This document shows positions 24,793-38,470 of a DNA stretch of 64,000 bases, in pieces. The notes beneath the pieces are model-generated. The model saw nothing but the letters and a program-made list of their open reading frames with translations. It had not been told where the DNA came from and ran no database searches. A program made the translations under genes and the position numbers. Every line of letters begins with the position of its first letter. Positions within the stretch are counted from its first letter, which is position 1. Source of the DNA: Bacteroidales bacterium (GTDB taxonomy: Bacteria; Bacteroidota; Bacteroidia; Bacteroidales; UBA932); contig JAFSPG010000018.1 in NCBI GenBank assembly GCA_017443025.1, positions 124,001-188,000 on the forward strand, written 5' to 3'.

Positions 24793-24888
24793 TACGGAAA
24801 CAATATGCTCGAAACGATTTTTACGATTCTTTAAATTTAAATTTACGATTTTTATTTTCGAGATTTAGCAACACTCATGTTTTTAAGG

Positions 24889-25007
24889 GCATGGGGTAGC
24901 CTTCGGATGGTGTGGCCGCCCGTGGCCACATGAACGGGAGGGGCCCAACCATCGGTTGGGAGGGATAGCGCCGAAGGCGCGTACCATTCCGAAGGCTACC
25001 GCCATGC
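24889..25007. repeat. Nested palindromic element, copy A (free-standing)
   Basis: An outer near-perfect stem pairs 24889-24911 (GCATGGGGTAGCCTTCGGA...) with 24983-25007. Inside are three separate hairpins: TGTGGCC/GGCCACA (24911-24930), CCCAACC/GGTTGGG (24944-24960) and GCGCC/GGCGC (24968-24980). The result is a four-way junction, cruciform or cloverleaf-like, of 119 bp. The core GGGAGGGG-CCCA-loop-TGGGAGG is shared with the element inside trmB (37360-37460). No convincing ORF uses it. It lies five bases beyond the T-run of the terminator that follows the Cys-rich gene. It may be a short non-autonomous mobile repeat or a structured RNA; it is too GC-rich and too long for a simple terminator. 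Confidence 0.75.
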
Positions 25008-25011
25008 TCCG

Positions 25012-37107: not shown

Positions 37108-38043
37108 CTAAAGATCCGGGAGGGCGACGCTGTGGCGGGGGCCCTCGACGGAGCGCCAGTAATCAGCGTCGAACGACGACGGGCTGAGGATATCATCTGA
37201 GGTGCCGATGCAGAAGCAGAGGTAGGTGATACGGTAGCCCTGGCGGCTGAACATCGTCTCGTAGTAGGTGTGGACCTCGAAGATGGCGTCGACCTGCGCG
37301 TCGGAGAGGGCCTCCGCCCCGCCGAGCCGCGCCCGACGAGTTTCGCGAGCCTCGGCCTGCGGAGGATATGGCTGGCCGCATAAGCCGGCATTGGCTCCCG
37401 AAAAGGGAGGGGACCCACGAAGTGGGGAGGACCGGCGATGCGGCTCTGCCATATCCTCCGAGTAAAGGTCCTCAGAGCGGGCGAGGATGGAGAAGGAGTT
37501 CTCGCGGCAGAGAGCAAGTGTGTACTGATGCAGGAACATGCTGTCCGTCTTCAGGTGAATCAGCCCACCGGGAGCGAGAAACTCCCGATAGCGTTTAAGG
37601 AAAAGCGGGCTTGACAGACGGGAATTCTCGTGATGAAGCTGCGGGTCGGAGAAAGTCAGCCAGATTTCCGCCACCTCGGAAGGAGCGAAAAAAGCGGGAA
37701 TGAACTCGATTCTGGTACGCAGAAAAGCCACATTCCCCATCTTGCTCAAGGTAGCCTCCTTTGCACCCCTCCAGAGCCTTGCACCCTTGATATCCACACC
37801 AATATAATTATAGTCCGGATTCCGGCGAGCCAAATCGATGGTATATTCTCCACGCCCGCATCCAAGCTCCAGCACGATAGGCCTCGGCGCATCGAACATC
37901 TTTTCGTTCCAATGCCCCTTGAGCGGATGATCCTTCAAGGCGAACTCCCTGCCACGCCCGGAAAGAACTTCCTCGGCAGCAGGCTGTACAAGACAGGCGA
38001 AAGTCTCGTTCTCGGCAAATTTGCGCAGTTTTCCGTGACCCAT
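37108..38043 (-). CDS. trmB: tRNA (guanine-N7)-methyltransferase with an in-frame repeat insertion
   Basis: 311 residues from the ATG at 38043, which lies one base from the gldH stop. The SAM-binding fold is clear: IVLELGCGRGEYTIDLA (about 56-72), YIGVDIKGARLWRGAKEA, NVAFLRTRIEFI and EIWLTFSDPQ, the form usual in Bacteroidota. It methylates G46 of tRNAs. Between SEDLYSED (about 190-197) and ALSDAQVDAIFEVHTYYE (about 245) it carries about 48 extra residues, of which 195-228 are encoded by a 101-bp palindromic element (37360-37460). In relatives these two blocks are nearly adjacent, from memory of the family. The insert is in frame, is Arg/Pro/Ser-rich and is probably a surface loop. The active-site motifs are intact, so the enzyme may still work. 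Confidence 0.92.
   Translation of the reverse strand: MGHGKLRKFAENETFACLVQPAAEEVLSGRGREFALKDHPLKGHWNEKMFDAPRPIVLELGCGRGEYTIDLARRNPDYNYIGVDIKGARLWRGAKEATLSKMGNVAFLRTRIEFIPAFFAPSEVAEIWLTFSDPQLHHENSRLSSPLFLKRYREFLAPGGLIHLKTDSMFLHQYTLALCRENSFSILARSEDLYSEDMAEPHRRSSPLRGSPPFSGANAGLCGQPYPPQAEARETRRARLGGAEALSDAQVDAIFEVHTYYETMFSRQGYRITYLCFCIGTSDDILSPSSFDADYWRSVEGPRHSVALPDL
37321..37356. repeat. Short inverted repeat flanking element B within trmB
   Basis: GCCGAG at 37321-37326 pairs with CTCGGC at 37351-37356, with CGC/GCG continuing the stem inward. It abuts element B and lies in the same extra region of trmB (about residues 229-241). It may be part of the same insertion or an older one. Confidence 0.4.
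37360..37460. repeat. Nested palindromic element, copy B (inside trmB)
   Basis: The outer stem is a perfect 13-bp inverted repeat (CGGAGGATATGGC at 37360-37372 with 37448-37460). Inside it lie GCCGCAT/ATGCGGC (37375-37381 with 37438-37444) and GCCGG/CCGGC (37384-37388 with 37432-37436). Two inner hairpins complete it: CTCCC-GAAAA-GGGAG (37395-37409) and CCCAC-GAA-GTGGG (37414-37426). The core GGGAGGGG-ACCCA-loop-TGGGGAGGA matches that of copy A at 24936-24964. Placement within an ORF without breaking it recalls the Rickettsia palindromic elements, but no relation is claimed. Confidence 0.8.
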
Positions 38044-38044
38044 G

Positions 38045-38470
38045 TTATTCCCTTTCAAGACGCACCCCGACTCCGCGAAGCGCCAGTTTTTCAATATCCT
38101 CCGGAAGAAAACGAACTGTCATCGACCATTCCCCATACGACACCGGCCTGAATCCCTCGGAAATAACCTTTACGAACACTGAAGACGAAGGATTATTCTC
38201 TACGATATCGGTAAATTGGAAATCCAAACGGTCTCTGTACACAAGGCTGTCCGGTGACAGCAGAGATACCTCAACCGGCAAAACTGCATCATCTCCGACA
38301 GCGGACTCCCCCGCATAAATCAACAGCTCAAGGCTGTAACGAAGCGAATCAGCCATATCAAGAGTAAAGGAAACTGAATCCCCATCGATAAGCCTGTACG
38401 ATTCGTCGCTCGCCGGCCTGGAGCAGGCGAACAAAAGGGAGGCAAACACTATGAAGGCAAGCCGCCTCAC
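38045..38470 (-). CDS. gldH: GldH-like gliding-motility-type lipoprotein
   Basis: 141 residues with lipobox LLFAC (Cys16). The remainder is a beta-rich domain with DSLRYSLELLIY and GEWSMTVRFLPEDIEKLALRGVGVRL, the pattern of GldH. In Bacteroidales GldH homologues are present in non-gliding species and their job is unclear. The start overlaps the ricT stop by four bases; the holB-ricT-gldH order is common in Bacteroides relatives. Confidence 0.85.
   Translation of the reverse strand: MRRLAFIVFASLLFACSRPASDESYRLIDGDSVSFTLDMADSLRYSLELLIYAGESAVGDDAVLPVEVSLLSPDSLVYRDRLDFQFTDIVENNPSSSVFVKVISEGFRPVSYGEWSMTVRFLPEDIEKLALRGVGVRLERE

What the first reader, a model, noticed from the sequence alone, without database searches (positions are those of the whole stretch)
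37360..37460. A related nested palindrome inserted in frame inside trmB
Seen: a perfect 13-bp outer inverted repeat with four inner stems lies in the coding region and adds about 34 residues; the whole extra region is about 48 residues. It shares the core GGGAGGGG-CCCA-loop-TGGGGAGG with the free copy at 24.9 kb. Known: Rickettsia palindromic elements can insert in genes without breaking them. Inference: a Bacteroidales element family able to create new protein segments.
Basis: partly seen in the sequence, partly recalled or inferred. Interest (0 to 1): 0.8.

Follow-up and report, generated by a model that had tools for sequence, protein, structure and literature searches.

The report
Mobile palindrome inserted inside a gene
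A short hairpin-forming DNA element sits in frame inside a tRNA-modification gene of a gut bacterium, belongs to a repeated family that lengthens several other proteins the same way, and lies at a spot where a number of related species carry similar hairpin insertions.

Summary
Observation confirmed. Window 37360-37460 is a 101-bp nested palindrome (perfect 13-bp outer arms) in the open trmB frame. It is one of 9 copies in its genome. Seven lie in frame in genes: trmB, truB, a SpoU methylase, citC-citG, citX, an Fe-S protein, namZ. In the wider sample, 68 of 111 placed copies are intergenic, 50 between convergent ORFs.

The cap (two small hairpins, about 46 nt) is nearly invariant. The arms differ between copies but stay complementary: 17 of 26 arm pairs have changes on both sides; 0 of 500 shuffles reach that.

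The TrmB loop is a hotspot: 44 of 147 parsed genus loci have long loops; 24 of these hold a strong inverted repeat, against 2 of 103 short ones; 17 of the 24 carry a cap like that of the 24.9-kb copy, which is a second family.

Caps flip inside their arms and whole elements are present or absent between relatives. In TrmB the left arm covers host codons next to D-L-Y, suggesting fold-back copying. It works like Rickettsia palindromic elements; the mobiliser is unknown.

The parts
37360..37460 (.). Family A palindromic element (arms + cap), in frame in trmB
37360..37372 (+). Outer arm CGGAGGATATGGC; in gene sense the 3' arm (extra residues around PYPP)
37448..37460 (+). Outer arm GCCATATCCTCCG; in gene sense the 5' arm, starts 1 nt after the Tyr codon of D-L-Y and reads S-E-D-M-A
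37374..37381 (+). Inner arm, pairs with 37438-37445
37384..37388 (+). Innermost arm, pairs with 37432-37436
37395..37409 (+). Cap hairpin 1, CTCCC-GAAAA-GGGAG (almost invariant in the 9 own copies)
37414..37426 (+). Cap hairpin 2, CCCAC-GAA-GTGGG (stem conserved, loop varies)
37108..38043 (-). trmB, tRNA (guanine-N7)-methyltransferase, 311 aa with the start chosen here, open across the element
24885..25010 (.). Family B palindromic element (second family, free copy): conserved cap, copy-specific arms

Best explanation
The feature is a non-autonomous mobile palindromic element, working like a Rickettsia palindromic element, that entered the variable loop between the methyltransferase core and the C-terminal segment of TrmB and was kept because it preserved the frame and the loop tolerates length. 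Shown: repeated family, in-frame host genes, presence/absence between relatives, covarying arms, cap inversion, use of the same TrmB loop by two cap families. Inferred: that it is mobile; that what moves or recognises the unit is the folded cap rather than a conserved terminal repeat; that the outer inverted repeat consists, at least in part, of host DNA next to the insertion plus an inverted copy made by fold-back (snap-back) synthesis during or after insertion; that copies between convergent genes persist because they harm nothing and may act as two-way terminators. The enzyme that moves it was not found.
For: Nine copies in the own genome, 0 for the reversed pattern; 1-17 places per genome (up to 2 mismatches) in 20 relatives chosen because they hold the core, 0 controls. 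Seven of 9 own copies in frame in genes; Pfam sees the host on both sides of the insert for CitG, CitX, TruB, SpoU and the Fe-S protein (the TruB C-terminal match is below its curated cut-off) and on one side for TrmB and NamZ. The insert is absent from CitX of G303 and G365, CitG of G393 and G365, SpoU of G303 and G393. 17 of 26 arm pairs changed on both sides, 0 of 500 shuffles, slid controls far lower. 113 of 116 copies have at least 15 Watson-Crick arm pairs, against 17% of 300 arm-swapped controls. Filled and empty sites. Cap inversions inside fixed flanks: two intergenic sites and TrmB L298 against L009. TrmB hotspot 24 of 44 against 2 of 103. Left arm begins -3 to +14 nt from the Tyr codon of D-[LI]-Y in 25 of 26 TrmB loops with a stem, overlapping that codon in 7 (some of the 26 are close relatives, not independent).
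Against: No target-site duplication was seen beside the trmB copy. At the Coprenecus-type sites the arms have no counterpart in the empty alleles read, so target-derived arms are not shown there, and in the own genome most copies share inner arms. The cleanest TrmB pair (L304 filled, L357 without) is better read as a deletion between GAAAA repeats. Four of 9 own copies do not form the outermost pairs. Loops of TrmB, TruB, SpoU and CitX also vary in relatives without a palindrome. Y1 transposase hits do not follow copy number.
Confidence: 0.72

Rival explanations
1. Ordinary MITE: an element with its own terminal inverted repeats moved by a transposase in trans; arms differ only because copies are old and both arms are kept matched by selection or arm-to-arm conversion.
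For: In the own genome the inner arms are alike among most copies, and Coprenecus arms seem to share a loose motif (my reading), so arms can travel with the cap; at three sites the whole element is present or absent.
Against: The outermost 4 pairs show three or four pair types each among 9 own copies, each formed in 5 of 9; the G259, G260 and G261 copies listed each have their own arms; the conserved part is the centre, not the ends; TrmB left arms cover host codons.
Confidence: 0.3
2. A structured regulatory or terminator element: a capped two-way terminator between convergent genes, kept for function, with occasional stray copies in genes.
For: 50 of 111 placed copies lie between convergent ORFs, many within about 30 nt of both ends (no chance expectation was computed); near-invariant cap and compensated arms.
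Against: Seven of 9 own copies are inside genes; the cap flips inside fixed flanks; sites are empty in several relatives; no Rfam match on the element.
Confidence: 0.2
3. The cap inserts into the apex of hairpins that already exist (terminators, or palindromes formed by template switching), so the arms belong to the target from the start.
For: A capless perfect 36-bp palindrome lies at the same place in one relative's trmB (L362), and L352 has a smaller one; terminators between convergent genes are natural hairpins.
Against: Stems of 25-30 bp are longer than usual terminators and unusual in coding DNA (general knowledge); capless palindromes may be deletion scars; the empty alleles read at sites L119, L185 and L132 show no such arms.
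Confidence: 0.2
4. Chance GC-rich palindrome or a TrmB-specific protein feature.
For: TrmB loop length varies widely even without a palindrome.
Against: Same core at 8 other places of the genome, none for the reversed pattern; fold z below -6.
Confidence: 0.01

Closest known systems
Rickettsia palindromic elements (RPE)
   Same: Size (105-146 bp there, 101 bp here), palindromic, fused in frame into protein genes, also intergenic (RPE features from passages of PMC2229807).
   Different: Different phylum; RPEs are tabulated there with a 12-bp terminal inverted repeat, whereas here the outer ends are copy-specific and the centre is conserved; cap inversion and a TrmB loop hotspot are added.
REP elements (GTAG- and CGTC-tagged) and their RAYT transposases
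   Same: Palindromic, between convergent or unidirectional genes, sometimes inside genes (passages of PMC3733652).
   Different: REPs are 20-40 bp with a tetranucleotide tag at one end; here about 100 bp with a two-hairpin cap; no clear link to Y1 transposase hits.
Bacterial MITEs (Correia/NEMIS, ERIC, RUP, YPAL)
   Same: About 100-200 bp, hairpin-forming, non-autonomous, several with frames fused to genes (passages of PMC2229807).
   Different: Several of these are tabulated with terminal repeats and target duplications; no terminal repeat shared by all copies and no target duplication were found here.

Membership tests
Rickettsia palindromic elements | about 100-150 bp palindrome | tested here: met
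   101 bp
Rickettsia palindromic elements | in-frame insertion in protein genes | tested here: met
   7 of 9 own copies
Rickettsia palindromic elements | sequence kinship to an RPE family | not tested
   no RPE sequence was compared
Rickettsia palindromic elements | Rickettsia host | tested here: not met
MITE | terminal inverted repeat shared by the copies | tested here: not met
   outer pairs differ between copies (listings); inner arms are shared within the own genome
MITE | direct target-site duplication | tested here: inconclusive
   none seen by eye beside the trmB copy; GAAAA repeats beside L304 may be a deletion junction
REP with RAYT | Y1 transposase tracks the repeats | tested here: inconclusive
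   14 of 18 genomes have hits (12 over the cut-off), including four (G003, G005, G016, G023) with no strict-pattern match; G260, with 8 places, has one sub-cut-off hit
REP with RAYT | GTAG or CGTC tag at one end | not tested
   not scanned
Known RNA family | Rfam match | tested here: not met
   none on the elements in the 6 loci and the 3 loci; one search did list one SAM-II match and three sub-threshold matches, the sub-threshold one in L229 (1689-1807) lying just beside that copy

The most novel reading that the evidence does not exclude
A mobile folded DNA or RNA cap that carries no fixed ends: on arrival it builds its own inverted repeat by fold-back copying of 10-30 bp of the target next to it, so every copy has host-derived outer arms; the cap later flips inside those arms, and two cap families use the same protein loops (TrmB, TruB) over and over.
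Probability: 0.3. Interest if true: 0.86.

Novelty: new variant of a known kind. Interest (0 to 1): 0.66.

Why it matters
In-frame palindromic elements are best known from Rickettsia. Here a genus with at least 200 sequenced species shows such elements present, absent, flipped and in different frames in the same loops of conserved enzymes, so insertion, loss, frame choice and effect on a measurable enzyme can be followed. If the arms are made from the target, it is an insertion mode that terminal-repeat transposition does not explain.

Tried and rejected
Arms always copied from the target: rejected as a general rule, since the empty alleles read at sites L119, L185 and L132 lack both arms. L357 as a true empty TrmB allele: rejected, because it shares the derived GTAACTC with L304 and its junction fits a deletion between GAAAA repeats. 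Whole small hairpins inside left arms as a general feature: weak, 10 of 116 copies against 2.7% of shuffles. Stop-free cap as a sign of selection for coding: rejected, 9.3% of shuffles are also stop-free. Y1 transposase as mobiliser: no clear correlation. Phage carriage: 0 exact matches for either cap pattern in viral contigs. Order-wide spread: 1 of 198 genomes sampled, the own one, with up to 1 mismatch, so the core looks limited to near kin. Literature: the searches listed no paper that by title or abstract start describes this element (searches listed none at all); I saw listings, and passages of two papers, no whole text.

In one search duplicates and contig-edge copies were dropped and 117 kept; the listing was cut in the middle. 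One search used 116 (one with masked bases dropped). One search placed 111 (6 edge copies dropped), with ORFs called by length only; 'ORF end inside' (28) is partly spurious, and in-ORF (15) includes own copies, one site seen twice (L040, L059) and doubtful small ORFs (L087, L113, L131). TrmB loci: 24, 25 and 100, which are the better-scoring ones of 189 genomes with a match; 147 of 149 parsed (L342, L344 missed); a first parse with a narrower pattern got only 62. Cap B in TrmB (17 of 24, 20 loops) comes from fuzzy patterns, and L299 is doubtful; a fuzzy search for cap A (4 errors) also hits five loops, L013, L306, L324, L327 and L334, that match the cap B pattern. No loop holds a stop, but one search reports one stop elsewhere in the match for G409 and for G357.

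Full report
What is there. Window 37360-37460 is a nested palindrome with perfect 13-bp outer arms, stable on both strands (z -6.5 and -7.3, 0 of 200 shuffles as stable). It lies in the minus-strand ORF 37108-38094 (start taken at 38043), which is TrmB by Pfam and by solved relatives. The three best PDB relatives align up to query residue 197, where the insert begins; some weaker ones align up to 210.

It is a repeat family (family A). A core pattern finds 7 copies in the 1.66-Mb genome and a laxer 24-nt pattern (up to 3 mismatches) finds 9, with 0 for the reversed pattern. Aligned, the cap CATTGGCTCCCGAAAAGGGAGGGGACCC-hairpin-GGGGAGGA is nearly invariant and the arms are not. Of 26 arm pairs 17 carry changes on both sides. 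The covariation score is 0.319 against a shuffled mean of 0.107 (0 of 500 reach it), and sliding the pairing by 1-3 columns gives 0.042-0.129. Each of the four outermost pairs shows three or four pair types and is formed in 5 of 9 copies, not formed in 4.

Where it sits. In the own genome 7 of 9 copies are in frame in genes: trmB (L007), citC-citG (L001), Fe-S protein (L003), namZ (L004), SpoU methylase (L005), truB (L006), citX (L188). L002 and L187 are not in a long frame of a recognised gene. Pfam recognises the hosts. Relatives lack the insert in CitX (L448, L456), CitG (L453, L460) and SpoU (L436, L437), while other relatives have different fillers at some of these places, such as CitX L452 and SpoU L458. 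In other species in-frame copies occur in truB again, in the opposite orientation (L088), in miaA as a tandem pair (L102), and in an oxidoreductase (L066). All six reading frames of the cap occur, if L040, L122 and L144, whose hosts were not tested with Pfam, are counted.

Relatives. The own genus is probably Cryptobacteroides, but this is inference. Six of 61 genus genomes, the own one included, match a strict pattern, and 1 of 198 order genomes matches. Among 20 named genomes picked because they hold the core, there are 1-17 places each. Arm pairing is long in nearly all copies: median 29 Watson-Crick pairs, 113 of 116 with at least 15, against 17% of arm-swapped controls, some of which share arms. 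Of 111 placed copies 50 lie between convergent ORFs, 18 at other intergenic positions, 15 in ORFs, 28 at an ORF end.

Coming and going. In genomes of one related genus (19 searched), site L119 is filled in G264 and G287, empty in five read (G279, G283, G263, G278, G288), with another spacer in two (G262, G285). Site L185 is filled in G258 and G264 and empty in seven. Site L132 is filled in G280 and empty in G279. Neither arm is present in these empty alleles. A further site is filled in five genomes and lacks the element in G284. At two sites the cap is inverted inside the same flanks in one species (G283; G264). Direction (gain or loss) was not settled by a tree.

The second family. The 24.9-kb copy belongs to family B: 16 places in the own genome match its middle at E below 0.001. 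Thirteen of the 16 were printed, and in ten of these I read copy-specific complementary arms around a conserved cap. Two of the 16 lie in long open frames. A and B share AGGGAGGGG-(CCC hairpin GGG)-AGG and may be distant kin.

The TrmB hotspot. I read the loop between the KTD and VQTFYE motifs in 147 of 149 genus TrmB loci. It ranges from 29 to 161 residues in the script's measure, and no loop has a stop. Forty-four are long (at least 55); 24 of these hold an inverted repeat of score 11 or more, against 2 of 103 short ones; 1 of 147 loci reached that score in ten shuffles each. Seventeen of the 24 match a family B-type cap, and 20 loops in all do so in a second fuzzy search, 3 in gene sense and 17 antisense, in three reading patterns (PPSYVAEGG, PLTWPRVA, ATLGHVRGG); the exact family A cap is only in the window's gene. 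Twenty of the 44 long loops therefore have no strong inverted repeat and need other explanations. L298 and L009 have the same flanking residues but the cap inverted (63 bp at 98.4% on the opposite strand). The TruB loop shows the same habit: inserts reading ENCATLGNIRG, a cap B peptide, in L461, L464 and L465.

Origin of the arms. In 25 of 26 TrmB loops with a stem the left arm starts between -3 and +14 nt from the Tyr codon of D-[LI]-Y, and in 7 it overlaps that codon (several of the 26 are close relatives). Codons of this kind exist in genes without a cap (D-I-Y-x-[EDQ]-G in L022, L333, L382, L352), though L352 and perhaps L382 look like scars of a lost insert. So the left arm is read as host sequence and the right arm as its inverted extra copy. 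In the own gene the arm reads S-E-D-M-A one base after the Tyr codon; G303 reads G-S-D-M-Q there, which agrees but does not prove it. L362 has a capless perfect 36-bp palindrome at this place, either a deletion scar or a palindrome that preceded the cap. Against a general rule, the Coprenecus-type empty alleles lack both arms, and own-genome copies share inner arms.

Reading. It works like RPEs (passages of PMC2229807), but membership by sequence was not tested, and the conserved-centre, variable-arm plan differs from terminal-repeat elements. The course I think most likely is: cap-driven insertion, arms built or rebuilt by fold-back copying, survival where the frame stays open and the loop is free, later flipping and deletion. 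Insertion enzyme, expression of the insert and its effect on TrmB remain open; structure prediction was off.

Noticed in passing
window 37321-37356: A second, imperfect small hairpin (12-nt arms, 83% complementary) lies in the other extra residues of the TrmB loop (AEARETRRARLGG), perhaps the worn trace of another insertion.
   Followed up: partly
L102, L006, L088, L005, L007: Several in-frame hosts are RNA-modification enzymes (MiaA, TruB twice, SpoU methylase, TrmB); whether this exceeds chance was not computed.
   Followed up: no
L362: One relative's trmB has a perfect 36-bp palindrome without any cap at the hotspot.
   Followed up: partly
L236, L239, L245: Family B copies with an extra piece at the same point of the cap; the gap is 78 nt in the two measured (C11 and C7), and L245 shows the same piece.
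   Followed up: no
L171, L177 (G258): Two of the same-arm copies in one Coprenecus genome share longer flanking sequence, so they may hitchhike on a larger repeat (read).
   Followed up: partly
L188, L012, L019, L301, L303, L367, L307, L317: Other repeat-like peptides or DNA occur in the same TrmB loop or at the start of citX: VISTE/SFRP-type, RHPELDSGS arrays, and GGACCTGGTCC arrays.
   Followed up: no
L305 3810-3869: An ordinary SAM-II riboswitch near a relative's trmB.
   Followed up: no
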